NCBI RefSeq assembly: GCF_009908315.1
Contig: NZ_JAAATW010000002.1
Span: 558,001 to 622,000 of the forward strand
Source of the DNA: Paragemmobacter ruber
Lineage (GTDB): Bacteria > Pseudomonadota > Alphaproteobacteria > Rhodobacterales > Rhodobacteraceae
DNA: 64,000 nucleotides
Direction: 5' to 3'
Of the stretch, positions 35,508-41,175 are shown piece after piece; position 1 is the stretch's first letter, and the number at the start of each line of letters is the position of its first letter. A program made the translations under genes and the position numbers. Below the pieces are notes generated by a model. The model did no database searches, had not been told where the DNA came from, and saw only the letters and a program-made list of their open reading frames with translations.

Positions 35508-36632
35508 ATGCCCGGACTGCATGCACATATCGACCCCGAGGGGCTTGAGGAGTTTTCGGTCGTCTTCACCGACCGCAGCCTGAACCACATGTCGGCGCGG
35601 TTTCAGGGCGTGATGCGGGATGTGTCGGGCCTGCTGAAAGAGGTCTATCGGGGATCGGCGGTGGCGCTGGTGCCCGGTGGCGGGACCTATGCGATGGAGG
35701 CGGTGGCGCGGCAGTTCGGCAAGGGGTCCGTGCTGATCGTGCGGAACGGGTGGTTTTCCTTCCGCTGGACGCAGATTTTCGACGCGGGCGGGTTCACCGC
35801 GCAGACCAGCGTGGTGATGGCGCGGCAGACGGGGAATGACCCGCGCGCGCCGTATGCGCCCCCCCCGGTGGAGGAGGTCGTGGCCAAGATCCGCGAGCAG
35901 CGCCCTGATGCGGTGTTCGCGCCGCATGTGGAGACGAGCGCCGGGATCATCCTGCCCGATGACTATATCGCGCAGGTGGCGGCGGCCGCCCATGAGGTGG
36001 GGGCCATCATGGTGCTGGATTGCATCGCCTCGGGCTGTGTCTGGGTGGATATGGAGGCGACGGGGGTGGATGTGCTGATTTCCGCCCCGCAGAAGGGTTG
36101 GTCGGCCTCGCCTTCGGCCGGGGTGGTGGTGCTGTCGCCGCGCGGTGAGGAACGACTGGCCGCGACGGAGAGCAATTCCTTCGCCGTCGATCTGAAGAAA
36201 TGGCGGGCGATCATGGCGGCCTATGAAGGCGGGGGCCATGCCTATCACGCCACGATGCCCACGGATGCCATCCTGGGCTTCCGTGATGCCATGCTGGAGA
36301 CCAAGGCCATGGGATTTGACGCGGCAAAGGCCGCGCAGTGGGAATTGGGCCGAGCTGTGCGGGCGCTGATGGCACGCAAGGGCGTGCCATCGGTCGCGGC
36401 TGAGGGGTTTCAGGCACCGGGTGTGGTGGTGAGCTATACCGATCAGCCAGACATCCAGAACGGCGCCAAGTTCCGCGCGCAGGGCCTGCAGATCGCGGCG
36501 GGCGTGCCCTTGCAGGTGGGGGAGGGCGAGGCCTTCAAGACCTTCCGTCTGGGGCTGTTCGGGCTGGACAAGCTGAAAGACGTGCCGGGAACCGTGGCGC
36601 GGCTGGAGCGGGCCGTCGAGGCGGTGCTGTAG
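35508..36632 (+). CDS. Class V aminotransferase (alanine--glyoxylate/serine--pyruvate type)
   Basis: A 374-residue PLP-dependent aminotransferase of fold type I. VPGGGTYAMEAVARQF (cofactor phosphate region), HVETSAGIILPDDY, VLDCIASGC (Asp to the pyridine nitrogen) and SAPQKGWSASPSAGVVVL with the Schiff-base lysine are visible, as is the late KTFRLGLFG. It probably moves an amino group between a 2-oxo acid and alanine, serine or glycine. The gene follows the enolase-superfamily gene after three bases. The IS1595-type transposon starts within a few bases of its stop codon. Confidence 0.88.
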   Translation: MPGLHAHIDPEGLEEFSVVFTDRSLNHMSARFQGVMRDVSGLLKEVYRGSAVALVPGGGTYAMEAVARQFGKGSVLIVRNGWFSFRWTQIFDAGGFTAQTSVVMARQTGNDPRAPYAPPPVEEVVAKIREQRPDAVFAPHVETSAGIILPDDYIAQVAAAAHEVGAIMVLDCIASGCVWVDMEATGVDVLISAPQKGWSASPSAGVVVLSPRGEERLAATESNSFAVDLKKWRAIMAAYEGGGHAYHATMPTDAILGFRDAMLETKAMGFDAAKAAQWELGRAVRALMARKGVPSVAAEGFQAPGVVVSYTDQPDIQNGAKFRAQGLQIAAGVPLQVGEGEAFKTFRLGLFGLDKLKDVPGTVARLERAVEAVL

Positions 36633-36634
36633 CG

Positions 36635-36679
36635 CCCGGAAAATCTTTCTGGAAGGCGATATTATACTTGACGTACCCA
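36635..36679 (+). repeat. Left terminal inverted repeat of the transposon
   Basis: Begins CCCGGAAAATCTTTC and ends CGTACCCA. It is the inverted partner of 39859-39903 with four mismatches and no gaps. Its inner part holds the -35 of the likely transposase promoter. Confidence 0.9.
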
Positions 36680-36696
36680 CGCCAAACCCTTAGATA
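36668..36696 (+). promoter_or_regulatory. Likely transposase promoter
   Basis: TTGACG (36668-36673), 17 bases, TAGATA (36691-36696), with the transposase start 27 bases on. The -35 lies inside the left inverted repeat, so transposase bound at the end could repress its own gene. Confidence 0.5.
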
Positions 36697-36723
36697 TAAG
36701 GGGCAAGCAAGAGAGTACGCGCC

Positions 36724-37638
36724 ATGTCCATCCTGTCCCGCCCCGAGTTCCACAATGAAGAAGCCGCATACGCCTATGTGGAAGCGCGCGTTTGGGCGAA
36801 CGGTCGGGTTTGCCCGCACTGCGGCGAATGTGAGCGCACCAGCAAGATGGGCGGCAAGTCCACCCGCATCGGCACCTATAAGTGCTACTCCTGCCGCAAG
36901 CCGTTCACCGTCAAGATCGGCACGATTTTCGAGTCCAGCCACGTTCCCATGAACCTGTGGCTGCAAGCGATCTACCTGATGTGCGCCAGCAAAAAGGGCA
37001 TCAGCAGCAACCAGCTTCACCGCACCCTTGGCGTCACGCTCAAGACCGCATGGTTCATGTCTCACCGCATCCGCGAAGCTATGCGTGACGACAGCATCGG
37101 CACGTTTGGCTCTGGTGGTGGCGCTGTTGAGGTTGATGAAACCTTCATCGGTCGTGAGCCGGGCGTGGAAAAAAAGACCGCCTATCACCACAAGATGAAG
37201 GTTGTCAGCCTGTTGGACCGTGAGACGGGCCGTGCCAAGAGCATCGTTGTGGATGCGCTGACTATTGCGACCATCGCGCCGATCCTGAGCGAGAACATTG
37301 CCCGCGAAGCCACGCTCTACACGGACGAAGCCAAGCACTACCGCAAGCCCGGCAAGATGTTCGCCGCTCATGGTGTGGTCGAGCATGGCAAGGATGAATA
37401 CGTGCGCGGCGACGTCCACACCAACACGATTGAGGGTTACTTCTCCATCTTCAAGCGCGGCATGAAGGGCATCTACCAGCACTGCGGCAAGAAGCACCTG
37501 CACCGCTACATGGCGGAGTTTGATTTCCGTTACAGCAACCGTGCCGCGCTGGATGTGACTGATGCGATGCGTGCTGACATCGCCCTTAACGGGATCGTAG
37601 GGAAAAGACTGCTTTACCGGGACTCGTTGGGCGCGTAG
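36724..37638 (+). CDS. IS1595-family (ISXO2-like) transposase
   Basis: A 304-residue transposase. An N-terminal zinc ribbon (CPHCGECERT ... YKCYSCRKPF, about residues 33-62) is followed by a helix-turn-helix-like region (GISSNQLHRTLGVTLKTAWFMSHRIREAM). The ISXO2-type DDE/DDN catalytic domain comes next, with EVDETFIG, LYTDEAKHY and HTNTIEGYFSIFKRGMKGIYQH. Length and order are complete, so it may be active. The ATG at 36724 is the first in frame. It drives a transposon with unrelated passenger genes. Confidence 0.95.
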   Translation: MSILSRPEFHNEEAAYAYVEARVWANGRVCPHCGECERTSKMGGKSTRIGTYKCYSCRKPFTVKIGTIFESSHVPMNLWLQAIYLMCASKKGISSNQLHRTLGVTLKTAWFMSHRIREAMRDDSIGTFGSGGGAVEVDETFIGREPGVEKKTAYHHKMKVVSLLDRETGRAKSIVVDALTIATIAPILSENIAREATLYTDEAKHYRKPGKMFAAHGVVEHGKDEYVRGDVHTNTIEGYFSIFKRGMKGIYQHCGKKHLHRYMAEFDFRYSNRAALDVTDAMRADIALNGIVGKRLLYRDSLGA

Positions 37639-37661
37639 AATCTGCGCCGGAGGCGCAGAAA

Positions 37662-38492
37662 TTGGCACAGCATCACCATAAGGGCTTCACAGTCTACTTG
37701 AGCGGCACTGATGGTCATCAGGGCAACGTCCTTGCACATACGTACGTCGGGAAAATCAATAGGCTCATTCTGGTGATGAATCGACTGGAGCGTCTTCACG
37801 AGGGATCCAGCGTCAAGAAAACTGACTTTGAGATCATTGATGCCGATAAGAAGAATCCGACTACACTCACTCTCAAGCCCGTTCCTCGTGTGAGGGATTA
37901 CAATCCGGCACCGGCGGTCTATTGGAGTATTGCGCAGCTTGAGACTATTGACCGAGGCGAAGAACCGGATCAGCGAATACCGAGTGCTGTTCTTGGTGAG
38001 ATCGCAGAGATGGCAGCGCCAAGTAAGGACGATGGATATAAGGCGTTCTGGATCAACGGACACACTGATCCGGTGCATTTTGACAAGGATTTTCATGTGA
38101 AGGCTTTGAGCCTTGCACAGAAACGGGCTTTTGCTGAGACGCCAATTGTATGGCATTCCGGCAAGGCCATTGGAGAGGTAATTGGCGAACTCAAAAAGGT
38201 GGACGACCTGGACGCGGACAACGAAGTGGTTCTAGTTCCTGCCACTGGGCCAGACTTTATTCGCTGCACCTTCCCCGAAGCAATGAAATCCGAGATCGGA
38301 AAATACTTATTCAAGAAGGTAAAAGTAAAGGGTGTGCTGACTTATGATAGCCTTTCCCCCCACCCCAAGCGTGTGCAAATCCTTGACGATGGGATTAGTC
38401 TCTATCCAGCTTCTGTGTCCGTTGTAAAGTTCGCTGACTTGCGCGGGATATTTGCCGGTCGAAAACGTCAAGAAGTGGCTTGGGACTTATAG
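37662..38492 (+). CDS. Transposon passenger: unknown 276-aa protein paired with a PIN nuclease
   Basis: I do not recognise this protein. It begins with a short histidine run (MAQHHHKG), has mixed alpha/beta character, no signal peptide and no membrane segment. The C-terminal 80 residues are beta-rich (EVVLVPATGPDFIRCTFPEAM, LFKKVKVKGVLTYDSL), possibly a small barrel. The TTG start at 37662 is chosen because GGAGG lies nine bases upstream, within a short hairpin (CTGCGCC/GGCGCAG). Its stop is directly followed by the PIN gene start, so the two are surely co-expressed; an antitoxin or partner role is a guess. Confidence 0.72.
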   Translation: MAQHHHKGFTVYLSGTDGHQGNVLAHTYVGKINRLILVMNRLERLHEGSSVKKTDFEIIDADKKNPTTLTLKPVPRVRDYNPAPAVYWSIAQLETIDRGEEPDQRIPSAVLGEIAEMAAPSKDDGYKAFWINGHTDPVHFDKDFHVKALSLAQKRAFAETPIVWHSGKAIGEVIGELKKVDDLDADNEVVLVPATGPDFIRCTFPEAMKSEIGKYLFKKVKVKGVLTYDSLSPHPKRVQILDDGISLYPASVSVVKFADLRGIFAGRKRQEVAWDL

Positions 38493-39089
38493 ATGCCGGT
38501 GAAGAGGAAGATTTATTGGGACTCTTGCATCTTCTACGAATGGCTTGGGAAAGAGGACGTCCCGCGCGAGAAAAGCGATGGGATTAGAGAAGTGCTTGCC
38601 AGTGTTGAGGCGCAAGAGGCCATCATCTTAACCTCTTCGGCGACCCACCTTGAGGTTCTTCCTCAAAAGATGACGGAGAAGGACGCGGCTGCCGAGAGCG
38701 CTTATCTCTCGCTCTTTGATGCTGAAAAGTTCTTTGAGTATCAGATAGGGACAAATGTGATCTTGTTGGCGCGAGAGATACGCGACTACTATTATCGCCC
38801 CGCAGTTGCCGCTGTTCCAAAGTCTAAAGGCGTTACTGCTGTGCCAGCACAGCCAGCAAAGATGATGGATTTAGGCGATTGTATCCACTTAGCTACCGCA
38901 ATTATCGAAAAGGCCGACGAGTTTCACACGAGGGACGCTTCAGACAAGAAGGGGAAGATTCCGCTGTTGACGCTTTACGCATGGAGCGGAGTGCCTTCAG
39001 TTTGCGGCAAGTATCCCCTCACAATCATGTCCCCTATCGCAAAGCAGGGAACACTTGATGTCGATGTCAGGCAAACAAAGCCAGAGTGA
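38493..39089 (+). CDS. Transposon passenger: PIN-domain nuclease
   Basis: A 198-residue PIN-domain protein. The acidic metal-binding residues are in place: D10 (IYWDSCIFYEWL), E54 (ATHLEVL), D129 (MMDLGDCIHLATAI) and D148 (FHTRDAS). PIN domains cut RNA and are the toxins of VapBC pairs, but this one is longer than VapC (about 130 residues) and has an extra C-terminal tail from about residue 155. It starts on the base after the preceding gene's stop. With its partner it could be a large toxin-antitoxin-like or phage-defence pair. Confidence 0.82.
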   Translation: MPVKRKIYWDSCIFYEWLGKEDVPREKSDGIREVLASVEAQEAIILTSSATHLEVLPQKMTEKDAAAESAYLSLFDAEKFFEYQIGTNVILLAREIRDYYYRPAVAAVPKSKGVTAVPAQPAKMMDLGDCIHLATAIIEKADEFHTRDASDKKGKIPLLTLYAWSGVPSVCGKYPLTIMSPIAKQGTLDVDVRQTKPE

Positions 39090-39213
39090 CCGCTTCAAAC
39101 AGGCCGCCCGCGAACTTGGCGTAGACGAGGCCGACGACGCGCTGGATCGCGTCATGGGCAAGCTTGACCTCAAGCGGAAACCTGAGGCCAAGGAGCAGAA
39201 AAATGATAAGTGA
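39058..39213 (+). CDS. Transposon passenger: 51-aa charged protein
   Basis: A tiny, highly charged protein (MSMSGKQSQSDRFKQAARELGVDEADDALDRVMGKLDL is its core, split here by reading frame only). The SQSDRFKQAARELG part is predicted to be helical, with a lysine-rich end. It overlaps the end of the PIN gene by 32 bases in another frame and the next ORF by 11 bases. I recall similar short proteins beside other IS1595-type transposons, which could not be checked. Confidence 0.55.
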   Translation: MSMSGKQSQSDRFKQAARELGVDEADDALDRVMGKLDLKRKPEAKEQKNDK

Positions 39214-39349
39214 GCCGGTGAAGGCAGCAATTATTCTGGGGTTCGCGATAGTGCTCAGCACTTCGATCGCTACTTATTTCAGCGCGTACCACTCGTGTAT
39301 GCGCCCGTATCCGGACAACGAATTTCGCGCCCTTGAATGTGCAAGATGA
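39203..39349 (+). CDS. Transposon passenger: 48-aa single-helix membrane protein
   Basis: A short protein with one membrane helix (residues 6-26, VKAAIILGFAIVLSTSIATYF) and two cysteines after it (HSCMRP and LECAR). AAGGAG lies six bases before the ATG at 39203, inside the preceding ORF, which it overlaps by 11 bases. That arrangement suggests coupled translation. Function unknown; it could be a membrane-acting accessory of the cassette. Confidence 0.5.
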   Translation: MISEPVKAAIILGFAIVLSTSIATYFSAYHSCMRPYPDNEFRALECAR

Positions 39350-39401
39350 TTTGACGCGCCCGGGACAAAGAAAAGTGCTGCTTCGCCGTCTCTGGTATGC
39401 T

Positions 39402-39413
39402 ATGTTATAACAT
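39402..39413. promoter_or_regulatory. Perfect palindrome ATGTTATAACAT before a small ORF
   Basis: A 12-bp perfect palindrome 16 bases before the small ORF at 39430, overlapping a possible -10 region (TATGCTATGTTATAA). It is a plausible operator for autoregulation. Confidence 0.4.
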
Positions 39414-39429
39414 CACATTGGAGGCGCAC

Positions 39430-39603
39430 ATGAAAGTGGTATCCGAAAACGGGAAATTTGTGGTCACCGTGGAAACTGACGCAGAAGAACGCCACCTTGC
39501 CGCTCTCACCAGCGGCAGGGTAAGGATCACCAAGGCAAGTTGTCATCCAACCACTTGTTCACCTGTTCAGACCCCTGACCGTAATAGGGCTTTGACAGCG
39601 TAA
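39430..39603 (+). CDS. Transposon passenger: 57-aa unknown protein
   Basis: A short frame beginning MKVVSENGKFVVTVETDAEE, with GGAGG seven bases upstream and a palindromic motif in its presumed promoter. The first 45 residues look like a small beta-alpha unit; the last part overlaps the end of the convergent Cas2-like gene and may be read-through. Not recognised. It could be a small regulator. Confidence 0.4.
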   Translation: MKVVSENGKFVVTVETDAEERHLAALTSGRVRITKASCHPTTCSPVQTPDRNRALTA

Positions 39604-39799
39604 TCACATACAGTTGGTCGTTGTCGTCCAGAACTTTGGAAAACTTCGCAAACACATCATCTGCGTCCAAGTCCGTTGCGATAGCGTAGGATGACTCTGA
39701 AAGCATTGCGAAGCCGTCAAAGCCGTCTCGGATGATTTTCGTGATGTTGGGGCGTATAACCTCCCGGTTCAGATCGTAAGTCACAAGAAAGACAGCCAT
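39527..39799 (-). CDS. Transposon passenger: Cas2-like ferredoxin-fold protein ('SinR family')
   Basis: A 90-residue protein with a beta-alpha-beta-beta-alpha-beta pattern and a start, MAVFLVTYDLNRE, like that of Cas2 and VapD proteins with the acidic residue at the end of strand one. SSYAIATDLDADDVFAKFSKVLDDNDQLYVITLSKPYYGQG fits the second half. Relatives are annotated as SinR-family or Cas2-like proteins, several of them near mobile elements. No cas1 or CRISPR array is in the window. It is convergent with the other passengers and has its own start just inside the right inverted repeat. Confidence 0.65.
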   Translation of the reverse strand: MAVFLVTYDLNREVIRPNITKIIRDGFDGFAMLSESSYAIATDLDADDVFAKFSKVLDDNDQLYVITLSKPYYGQGSEQVNKWLDDNLPW

Positions 39800-39858
39800 A
39801 TCCAAATCTCCACACAAGATGATGTGTGGATCGTCTCACGGCCTACCCGATTCGGCAA

Positions 39859-39903
39859 TGGGTACGGGAAGTATAATATCGCCTTCTGGAAAGATTTTCC
39901 GGG
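39859..39903 (-). repeat. Right terminal inverted repeat of the transposon
   Basis: The inverted partner of 36635-36679; read on the minus strand it begins CCCGGAAAATCTTTC and ends CGTACCCA. Four mismatches in 45 bases, no gaps. Confidence 0.9.
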
Positions 39904-39909
39904 GCGGGG

Positions 39910-39975
39910 CCTGAAACTTTTCGTCGAAAAGTTTCAGGCGGGGGCGGCCCGAGAATTTTCGGGAAAATTCTCGGG
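39910..39975. repeat. Two long perfect palindromes after the transposon
   Basis: 39910-39938 (arms CCTGAAACTTTTC / GAAAAGTTTCAGG) and 39948-39975 (arms CCCGAGAATTTTC / GAAAATTCTCGGG) stand side by side between the transposon and the ubiH-like stop codon. Their layout resembles the palindrome cluster at 3083-3200. They may act as a terminator for the minus-strand gene or be a copy of the same element family. Confidence 0.7.
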
Positions 39976-39978
39976 TGC

Positions 39979-41175
39979 CTAGCGCACGCCGAGGCCTGCG
40001 CGCATCAGCGTCTTGCGGATCGGCGTGACGGAGTAGAGTGCGTTCAGTGCCGTGGCCCGCAGGTCGCGCAGGCCCTGCGCGCCCATCATCGAGGCGCGGT
40101 TGAGCGCGTCGATGCCGGTCACGCGGGCCTGCACCTCCAGATGGCGGGCACGGTGATAGGCGTCAAGCAGGGCTGGCGTGCCCGGATCGGCGCGGCTGCC
40201 CTGCGCGAGGTCGAGGAGCACCCGCAGGTCGGCCAGCGACATGTTCAGCCCCTGCGCGCCGATGGGCGGGACGACATGCGCGGCCTCGGCCACAAGCGCG
40301 GTGCGCTCGCCCGACATGCGGGCGGCGATCTGGCTGATGATGGGCCAGAGGGTGCGGCGGCTCACCAGCGTCAGGGGACCGAGGATCTGGCAGGAGCGGG
40401 CGTTCATCTCGGCCTCGAAGTCCGGTACGGGCAGGGCGGCGAGGCGTTCGGCATTCGGCCCGGTTTCCATCCAAACGATGGCAGAGCAGGGCATCCCGTC
40501 CCGATCGGGCAGGGGGACAAGGGTGAAGGGGCCGCCGCTGCGGTGGATTTCGGTTGATACGTTGTCGTGGGGCTTCGGGTGGGTGACGGCGAAGGCCAGC
40601 GCCTTCTGGCCGTAGCGTGTGGTCGTCACGGGAATGCTGAGTGCTTCGCGCATGGCGGAGTTGCGCCCATCGGCGGCGATGACGAGGCGGGCGGTGATGC
40701 GGGTGCTGTCGGACAGGGTGGCGATGGCCTCGGCCTCGCGCGTGAGCAGGCGCGTGGTGGAGAGGCCGGGGCGGAAGGAGACGTTGGGGAGGTCGGCAAG
40801 GCGGGCGACCATTTCGCGCCGCAGGAGCCAGTTGGGCAGGTTCCAGCCGAAGGGGTGATCCGAGATGTCGGCGGCGTCGAATTCCTTGACGATGCGGGGG
40901 GTGGGTTCCGCGCCGCCTGCGTCGATGATGCGCATGACCTGAAGGGGGGCGGCGTGGGGGGCGAGCCTGTCCCAGAGACCTGCGGCTTCCAGAACGGGGA
41001 TCGAGGGCTGCAGGAAGGCGGTCGTGCGCAGATCGGCGCCCGCGTCCTCCAATCGGGTGACGGGGGGGGTGGGATCGACGCAGATCACGCGGAACCCGGC
41101 CGTGCCAAAGGCTGCGGCCGCGGTCAGGCCTGCGACACCCCCGCCGGAGATCAGGATATCGGTGGTTTCGCGCAT
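39979..41175 (-). CDS. UbiH/UbiF/COQ6-family FAD-dependent hydroxylase
   Basis: A 398-residue flavin monooxygenase of the UbiH/UbiF/VisC family, which hydroxylates the ring during ubiquinone synthesis. FAD motifs are ILISGGGVAGLTAAAAFG (residues 8-25), the RLVIAADGRNSAMRE loop in the middle, and ALVAEAAHVVPPIGAQGLNMSLADL, which binds the ribityl chain. There the usual GDAAH reads AEAAH, a small departure. Which ring position it modifies cannot be told. The ATG at 41175 gives MRETTDILISGGG. Confidence 0.88.
   Translation of the reverse strand: MRETTDILISGGGVAGLTAAAAFGTAGFRVICVDPTPPVTRLEDAGADLRTTAFLQPSIPVLEAAGLWDRLAPHAAPLQVMRIIDAGGAEPTPRIVKEFDAADISDHPFGWNLPNWLLRREMVARLADLPNVSFRPGLSTTRLLTREAEAIATLSDSTRITARLVIAADGRNSAMREALSIPVTTTRYGQKALAFAVTHPKPHDNVSTEIHRSGGPFTLVPLPDRDGMPCSAIVWMETGPNAERLAALPVPDFEAEMNARSCQILGPLTLVSRRTLWPIISQIAARMSGERTALVAEAAHVVPPIGAQGLNMSLADLRVLLDLAQGSRADPGTPALLDAYHRARHLEVQARVTGIDALNRASMMGAQGLRDLRATALNALYSVTPIRKTLMRAGLGVR

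What the first reader, a model, noticed from the sequence alone, without database searches (positions are those of the whole stretch)
36635..39903. IS1595-type transposon carrying an unknown protein, a PIN nuclease and a Cas2-like protein
The sequence shows 45-bp inverted repeats, a complete ISXO2-type transposase and a passenger cassette: a 276-aa unknown protein, an end-to-end PIN nuclease with all four acidic residues, three tiny ORFs (one membrane helix) and a convergent Cas2/VapD-like protein. IS1595-family elements are known to carry passengers, but I do not know this combination. A PIN nuclease joined to a large partner, with tiny ORFs and a Cas2-like fold, would fit a mobile defence or addiction module. 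This is inference.
Basis: partly seen in the sequence, partly recalled or inferred. Interest (0 to 1): 0.78.

Follow-up and report, generated by a model that had tools for sequence, protein, structure and literature searches.

The report
Jumping gene carrying nuclease-partner module
A small bacterial jumping gene carries a two-gene package, an RNA-cutting-type enzyme plus a tightly linked partner protein that the family databases do not name, and relatives of the package occur in ten bacterial phyla, often inside related jumping genes that elsewhere carry genes resembling known anti-virus or poison-antidote genes.

Summary
The element is real, but its borders need correcting. It is a 3,229-bp IS1595 (ISXO2-type) transposon, 36655-39883, with 25-bp inverted repeats and a perfect 8-bp duplication (TTCTGGAA). 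The "45-bp repeat" is that repeat plus the duplication plus 12-bp arms of a host palindrome, which stands unbroken in 5 of 18 congeners. The core cargo is a conserved pair: U (276 aa; confident AlphaFold model with a C-terminal OB-like fold; no Pfam family) and a PIN nuclease (D10, E54, D129, D148 invariant in 77 sequences). U lies directly upstream of PIN in 83 of 88 loci; 65 of 66 measured pairs overlap or lie within 20 nt. Of 69 loci with enough flank, 28 have an IS1595 transposase just upstream. On the tree that label is as scattered as shuffled labels, so the pair moves in and out of these elements. Sister transposons instead carry DUF3800, SocA/Panacea, DUF1828, methylase or BstA-like genes. 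A small protein, S, goes with the transposon, not with the pair. The Cas2-like gene is a separate, rarer passenger. Best reading: a PIN toxin held by an OB-fold partner, as addiction or abortive-infection cargo. That function is inferred, not tested.

The parts
36635..36646 (.). left arm of the host palindrome that was the insertion target (not part of the transposon)
   Evidence: joined flanks give CCCGGAAAATCTTTCTGGAAAGATTTTCCGGG; a palindrome with the same arms stands unbroken in L150, L154, L155, L156, L157, i.e. 5 of 18 congeners
36647..36654 (.). left copy of the 8-bp target-site duplication TTCTGGAA
   Evidence: 8/8 identical to 39884-39891; swapped-flank control 0 of 114
36655..36679 (+). 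left terminal inverted repeat (25 bp)
   Evidence: consensus shared with other IS1595 copies
36724..37638 (+). IS1595/ISXO2 transposase, 304 aa
   Evidence: PF12762, PF12760, NF033547; motifs DETFIG, LYTDEAKHY, HTNTIEGYFSIFK between residues 135 and 250
37662..38492 (+). U, 276-aa partner protein (TTG start): alpha/beta N-terminal part, OB-like C-terminal domain, less certain tail
   Evidence: family of 73 aligned sequences, AlphaFold pLDDT 91.0, pTM 0.72, OB-fold matches
38493..39089 (+). PIN nuclease, 198 aa, starting directly after the U stop codon
   Evidence: relative
39058..39213 (+). S, about 51-aa charged small protein overlapping the PIN 3' end; recurrent component of this IS1595 clade
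39164..39349 (+). small ORF with a possible membrane helix (ATG at 39203); no family
39397..39603 (+). small ORF, uncertain; no significant family
39527..39817 (-). Cas2-like small protein (90-96 aa), convergent; separate passenger
   Evidence: phrog_1090 4.8e-12, PADLOC Cas2 4.4e-4, relatives in 7 plasmid and 6 phage records
39859..39883 (-). right terminal inverted repeat (25 bp)
39884..39891 (.). right copy of the target-site duplication TTCTGGAA
39892..39903 (.). right arm of the host target palindrome (not part of the transposon)

Best explanation
An IS1595 transposon carries a two-gene nuclease module. PIN is an RNase-type toxin and U is its obligatory, closely coupled partner. U binds nucleic acid through its OB-like domain and holds PIN inactive. 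When U is lost or diverted, by loss of the element or by a phage nucleic acid bound by the OB domain, PIN cleaves cellular RNA. The pair then acts as an addiction or abortive-infection cargo that the transposon spreads and benefits from. Shown: the transposon and its ends, the pair and its conservation, the fold model of U, the invariant catalytic residues, the changing cargo of sister elements. Inferred: PIN activity, inhibition by U, the sensing role, the benefit.
For: U directly upstream of PIN in 83 of 88 non-redundant loci; 65 of 66 measured pairs overlap or lie within 20 nt, median overlap 8 nt, with start codons chosen by rule. PIN D10, E54, D129, D148 invariant in 77 sequences; the profile matches VapC 7by2. 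U model pLDDT 91.0 with strands at 167-247 that Foldseek matches to OB folds (enterotoxin OB domains, SSB, LysRS, CST, Teb1). Ten named phyla, transposase-linked in five; on a quick tree 25 label changes against shuffled means of 24.9 and 25.1, at least 15 forced by starred branches. In sister transposons the place behind the transposase holds, by my reading, DUF3800, SocA_Panacea or DUF1828 genes, and in more distant ones methylase or BstA-like genes; some U-PIN elements add Mrr_N, KilA-N or methylase genes farther on.
Against: No experiment. U (237-287 aa) is large for an antidote and matches no antitoxin family. The C-terminal Arg/Trp tail that looks like an inhibitor element is in only 26 of 73 U proteins, not in the window's own, and in none of 26 members of one large sub-group. 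Foldseek PDB hits have E of 0.004 or more and TM about 0.2 over the query; the first three rows are enterotoxin OB domains, so only the fold is supported. The ORFs beside transposase-free pairs are varied and gave no clear defence-island signal. My estimate was lowered from 0.5 after the tail was counted.
Confidence: 0.46

Rival explanations
1. U is not an antidote but a targeting subunit: its OB-like domain recruits PIN to particular RNA or single-stranded DNA of invaders, a restriction-like two-subunit nuclease.
For: OB folds often bind nucleic acids (general knowledge); U is large and two-domain; structural matches to phage proteins, one labelled DUF6575, and DUF6575 is named as an anti-phage domain in PMC9519451 (passages); methylase and BstA-like genes in related elements.
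Against: The upstream, overlapping position is usual for antidote genes (general knowledge); U does not match DUF6575 by sequence; no substrate evidence.
Confidence: 0.27
2. The pair controls the transposon itself, for instance by cutting the transposase message or limiting copy number.
For: In transposase-linked loci it lies behind the transposase gene in the same direction.
Against: 41 of 69 loci with enough flank have no IS1595 transposase, and 11 of the 13 nearest full-length sister transposons do without the pair.
Confidence: 0.1
3. A host-type RNA-processing or stress-response gene pair that hitch-hikes by chance.
For: Some ORFs beside transposase-free pairs match metabolic enzymes.
Against: Patchy distribution: 1 of 248 sampled genomes of the family by single-sequence search, the window's own, 5 of 385 of the class by profile; repeated association with IS1595.
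Confidence: 0.1

Closest known systems
IS1595 family transposons with passenger genes (ISXO2-type)
   Same: transposase family, zinc ribbon, terminal repeats, 8-bp duplications, passenger genes
   Different: no listing seen in the searches describes a U-PIN cargo or this changing cargo place; the founding 2009 paper could not be read
VapBC and other PIN-type toxin-antitoxin pairs
   Same: PIN enzyme with four acidic residues, partner gene upstream and touching or overlapping
   Different: partner is 237-287 aa with an OB-like domain, not a small antitoxin of a known family
DUF6575 anti-phage protein
   Same: Foldseek links the U model to a phage protein labelled DUF6575 (E 1.9e-7)
   Different: no match of 73 U proteins to PF20215 at E up to 0.1; whether DUF6575 genes have a PIN neighbour was not tested
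Tn7-like transposons with defence cargo
   Same: a transposon with exchangeable defence cargo (PMC8649781, search listing only)
   Different: much smaller element, one DDE transposase, few cargo genes
Cas2 / VapD-like small proteins (phrog_1090)
   Same: profile similarity and size of the convergent ORF
   Different: below the Pfam cut-off, no Cas1 or repeat array found in 36000-40500

Membership tests
IS1595 transposon family | ISXO2-like DDE transposase with N-terminal zinc ribbon | tested here: met
   PF12762 115.2 bits (cut-off 27), PF12760 40.3 (25.4), NF033547 195.9 (75)
IS1595 transposon family | terminal inverted repeats and 8-bp target duplication | tested here: met
   25-bp ends and TTCTGGAA 8/8; 8-bp A/T-rich repeats are reported for ISApl4 of the IS1016 subgroup in PMC12561309 (passages)
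VapBC toxin-antitoxin | PIN toxin with four acidic residues | tested here: met
VapBC toxin-antitoxin | small upstream antitoxin of a known antitoxin family | tested here: not met
   U is 276 aa and has no match in Pfam, NCBIfam or PADLOC at E up to 1; no antitoxin family recurs among 73 members (one single VbhA match at 0.038)
VapBC toxin-antitoxin | toxicity neutralised by the partner | not testable with these tools
   needs bench work
Cas2 (CRISPR adaptation) | Pfam Cas2 above cut-off | tested here: not met
   13.7 bits against 23.8
Cas2 (CRISPR adaptation) | Cas1 and a CRISPR array alongside | tested here: not met
   not among the scanned ORFs or repeats of 36000-40500; the rest of the window was not searched for it
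DUF6575 | match to PF20215 | tested here: not met
   not among the 22 families with E up to 0.1 for 73 U proteins
DUF6575 | same fold | tested here: inconclusive
   Foldseek E 1.9e-7 but TM 0.37 over the query; no DUF6575 sequences could be obtained for a profile comparison

The most novel reading that the evidence does not exclude
U-PIN is an undescribed class of nucleic-acid-sensing toxin pair: an OB-fold inhibitor that detects invader nucleic acid and releases a PIN RNase. It is carried by IS1595 transposons that act as shuttles for small defence cargo (U-PIN, BstA-like, SocA/Panacea, DUF3800, methylase genes), with S as a transposon helper protein.
Probability: 0.28. Interest if true: 0.78.

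Novelty: new variant of a known kind. Interest (0 to 1): 0.62.

Why it matters
It gives a widespread gene pair without a family name (ten named phyla) a definition, a fold model, invariant catalytic residues and a natural vehicle. It also suggests that very small transposons can shuttle single defence or addiction genes through an exchangeable cargo place, as larger Tn7-like elements do. That place is practical ground for finding further uncharacterised defence genes, such as the DUF3800 proteins seen there.

Tried and rejected
45-bp transposon ends: rejected; 25 bp plus duplication plus host palindrome.

A general preference for hairpin targets: a folding test on the 18 elements with enough control windows (of 38 with a good duplication) found none (mean rank 0.57; 3 of 18 at 0.1 or below). 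A simpler test for palindromes centred on the duplication gave p of 0.05 or less in 8 of 40 elements, the window strongest, where about 2 are expected, so a mild preference is not excluded. In 18 of 38 joined sites the junction lies in a stop-free frame of at least 150 codons; not followed up.

Cas2-like gene as a constant part: rejected. U-PIN-S as one unit: rejected, S follows the transposon. The C-terminal tail of U as the general inhibitor: rejected; 26 of 73 have it, the window's U does not.

Single-sequence fold of U: useless (pLDDT 32.5). Single-sequence searches of U in plasmids, phages, viral contigs and genome contigs: no relative. Rfam over 36000-40500: no match. Defence-island test for transposase-free pairs: 146 flanking ORFs of 39 loci (L091 and L052 left out by me); no PADLOC family matched more than 2 of 146 ORFs (25 of 184 families shown), and there was no control set, so no conclusion. 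Search for DUF6575 proteins to compare profiles: none found.

Biases: the 80 genome loci are the best of 157 candidates, ranked by similarity to a transposon-borne PIN. Three loci (L015, L016, L018) were dropped before counting because their contig lengths and genes are those of L077, L063, L055. Many records are metagenome bins, so single phylum labels may be wrong. The tree is of the quick kind; it leaves out three loci with short PIN matches and adds L130 and L135. For the cargo scan I gave 60 of the 81 ORFs that a script listed, leaving out 21 that looked spurious, and added six.
Full report
What is there. The stretch holds one complete IS1595-family transposon. Its transposase (36724-37638) matches the ISXO2-like DDE domain, the zinc ribbon and NCBI's IS1595 model far above their cut-offs. 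In sister copies the ends are repeats of about 25 bp near GGCGATATTATACTTGACAAACCCA, with 8-bp duplications outside. In the window this places the element at 36655-39883 with TTCTGGAA on both sides. Of 40 elements with scored ends, 37 have an 8/8 duplication, one 7/8 and two fail; none of 114 swapped-flank controls reached 8/8. The outer 12 nt on each side are arms of a host palindrome. All 18 congeners examined have the right-hand neighbour gene, with the aminotransferase gene on the same fetched stretch (partial matches in two, L166 and L167). In 5 of the 18 (L150, L154-L157) a palindrome with the same arms stands unbroken downstream of the neighbour gene; others have altered palindromes or none. 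The element is poorer in G+C than its surroundings (0.49-0.59 inside, 0.66-0.71 outside; cargo lower than transposase).

The conserved pair. Single-sequence searches of U in plasmids, phages, viral contigs and genome contigs found no relative, and in 248 genomes of the family only the own genome rang. In 398 genomes of the phylum one other rang. It showed the pattern: a U homologue overlapping a PIN gene, behind a broken IS1595 transposase. The U alignment then found matches in 5 of 385 genomes of the class, the window's included. The PIN alignments found 5 viral contigs and 157 candidates in genome contigs, of which the best 80 were kept. Profile searches over these loci gave 88 non-redundant loci after dropping three duplicates. 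U lies directly upstream of PIN in 83; an IS1595 transposase, whole or broken, lies within 2.5 kb upstream on the same strand in 32; S is present in 26. Of the 69 loci with at least 2.2 kb upstream and 0.7 kb downstream, 28 have the transposase and 41 do not. Of 66 pairs with measurable ends, 65 overlap or lie within 20 nt, median -8. The five PIN loci without U are two contig ends, two broken genes and one very distant match.

The proteins. In 77 aligned PIN proteins D10, E54, D129 and D148 are invariant, with H132. The profile finds a solved VapC (7by2, E 7.7e-6). The window's U has no match in Pfam, NCBIfam or PADLOC. Among 73 members the most frequent weak Pfam match is an OB-fold family (3 members, best 0.0025). 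With 73 sequences AlphaFold gives pLDDT 91.0 and pTM 0.72: residues 9-160 alpha/beta, 167-247 mostly strands, then a less certain end with a helix at 269-275. Among the 50 PDB rows that Foldseek shows, most are OB-fold proteins (enterotoxin OB domains first, then CST, LysRS, SSB, Teb1), with high probability but E of 0.004 or more and low TM over the query. This supports an OB-like domain and nothing more specific. Against viral models four hits have E under 0.001, one labelled DUF6575. DUF6575 is named among the new anti-phage domains in PMC9519451 (passages); this is a lead only. Twenty-six of 73 U proteins end in a tail with conserved Arg and Trp beside the PIN start. The window's U does not, and none of the 26 aligned members of one large sub-group does.

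Mobility of the pair. A quick tree of 87 loci built on U plus PIN needs 25 changes of the label transposase/no transposase, against shuffled means of 24.9 and 25.1; starred branches force at least 15. The pair has therefore probably moved between transposons and other places many times. The named records cover ten phyla (54 Pseudomonadota of 87 rows, 13 rows without a phylum name), transposase-linked in five. One copy (L013) sits in a viral contig as an IS1595 remnant with perfect ends and duplication, in which the front of the transposase is joined in frame to U.

The changing cargo. Of 248 genomes of the window's family, 47 have a transposase relative at E 1e-20 or better, the own genome included. 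I took 20 of the listed places. In the 13 nearest full-length ones (58-76% identical), U-PIN is present in two (L130, L135) and S in eleven. By my reading of the ORFs the others carry DUF3800-type proteins (five), a SocA/Panacea gene with a partner (L134), a DUF1828 protein (L137), or no clear cargo. Pfam over 66 cargo ORFs, drawn from U-PIN elements and sisters together, found DUF3800 in 5, KTSC in 3, N6_N4_Mtase in 2, and single Peptidase_M78, KilA-N, DUF1828, Mrr_N, SocA_Panacea, P63C and T5orf172 matches (25 of 30 families shown). Ten were re-scanned singly, which places DUF1828 in L137, SocA_Panacea in L134, Mrr_N in L076 and KilA-N in L020. PADLOC found BstA in 3 of 66, best 2.2e-119. 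That call does not name the members; I take them to be the 342-347-aa ORFs behind the transposases of L146-L148 (38-39% identical transposases). I recall BstA as a prophage-encoded abortive-infection protein. S is in 20 of 28 transposase-linked loci and 1 of 41 others (p 4.8e-10), so it goes with the transposon. ORFs with a Cas2-like look appear in four elements; the window's resembles those of L048 and L148 only weakly.

How it most likely works. The arrangement (partner first, PIN second, touching or overlapping), the constant pairing, the invariant active site, the mobility and the company in sister elements point to a toxin pair with an OB-fold partner, used as addiction or abortive-infection cargo. 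The steps from conserved active site to RNA cleavage, from coupling to inhibition, and from OB fold to sensing are inference. The strongest rival is a targeting-subunit model in which U guides PIN.

Literature. Searches for IS1595 with toxin-antitoxin and PIN terms, with passenger genes, with DUF3800, with BstA and with anti-phage terms, and for OB-fold antitoxins, returned no paper whose listing describes this pair or this cargo place. I saw listings only, except for passages of PMC9519451, PMC12561309, PMC2701414 and PMC12888890 (its carrier is an IS66 element). The library holds open-licence papers only; the 2009 paper on the IS1595 family is cited in PMC12561309 and PMC12888890 and was not read. 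PMC2701414, a survey of toxin-antitoxin families, has no occurrence of 'OB-fold' or 'OB fold' in its main text. PMC8649781 reports defence cargo on Tn7-like transposons (listing only).

Noticed in passing
window 39909-39968, and downstream of the same gene in L150-L167: Two further long palindromes stand beside the target palindrome, between two convergent genes; several congeners (for example L150, L154, L157, L158, L159) keep three palindromes there with changed letters but paired arms, which suggests a maintained hairpin series.
   Followed up: partly
L146, L147, L148: More distant IS1595 elements seem to carry, right behind the transposase, ORFs matching PADLOC BstA (3 of 66 scanned, best 2e-119; members inferred), i.e. 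a likely abortive-infection gene as transposon cargo.
   Followed up: partly
L131, L133, L136, L138, L139: DUF3800-type genes on the opposite strand are the commonest cargo of the 13 nearest sister transposons (five, by my reading); their function is unknown to me.
   Followed up: no
L134 (sister transposon): A SocA/Panacea antitoxin-domain gene followed by a 92-aa ORF sits behind the transposase of an IS1595 element.
   Followed up: no
L056 1260-5118: Three full U genes and a partial fourth lie in a row with a single PIN gene.
   Followed up: no
L032 179-3440: Two copies of a unit of U (C-terminal part) plus PIN, with equal profile scores, lie about 2.3 kb apart.
   Followed up: no
L013 2916-5331: IS1595 remnant with perfect ends and duplication in a viral contig; transposase front joined in frame to U, followed by PIN, S and, by eye, an ImmA/IrrE-type peptidase.
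   Followed up: partly
L029, L043, L048, L075 and window 39164-39349: Short ORFs that look like membrane proteins recur between the PIN gene and the right end; their similarity to each other was not tested.
   Followed up: no
L046, L047: Transposase-free U-PIN pairs lie beside a very large ORF (about 1,180 aa); some ORFs of the flanking set match helicases of defence systems, but one search does not name which.
   Followed up: no
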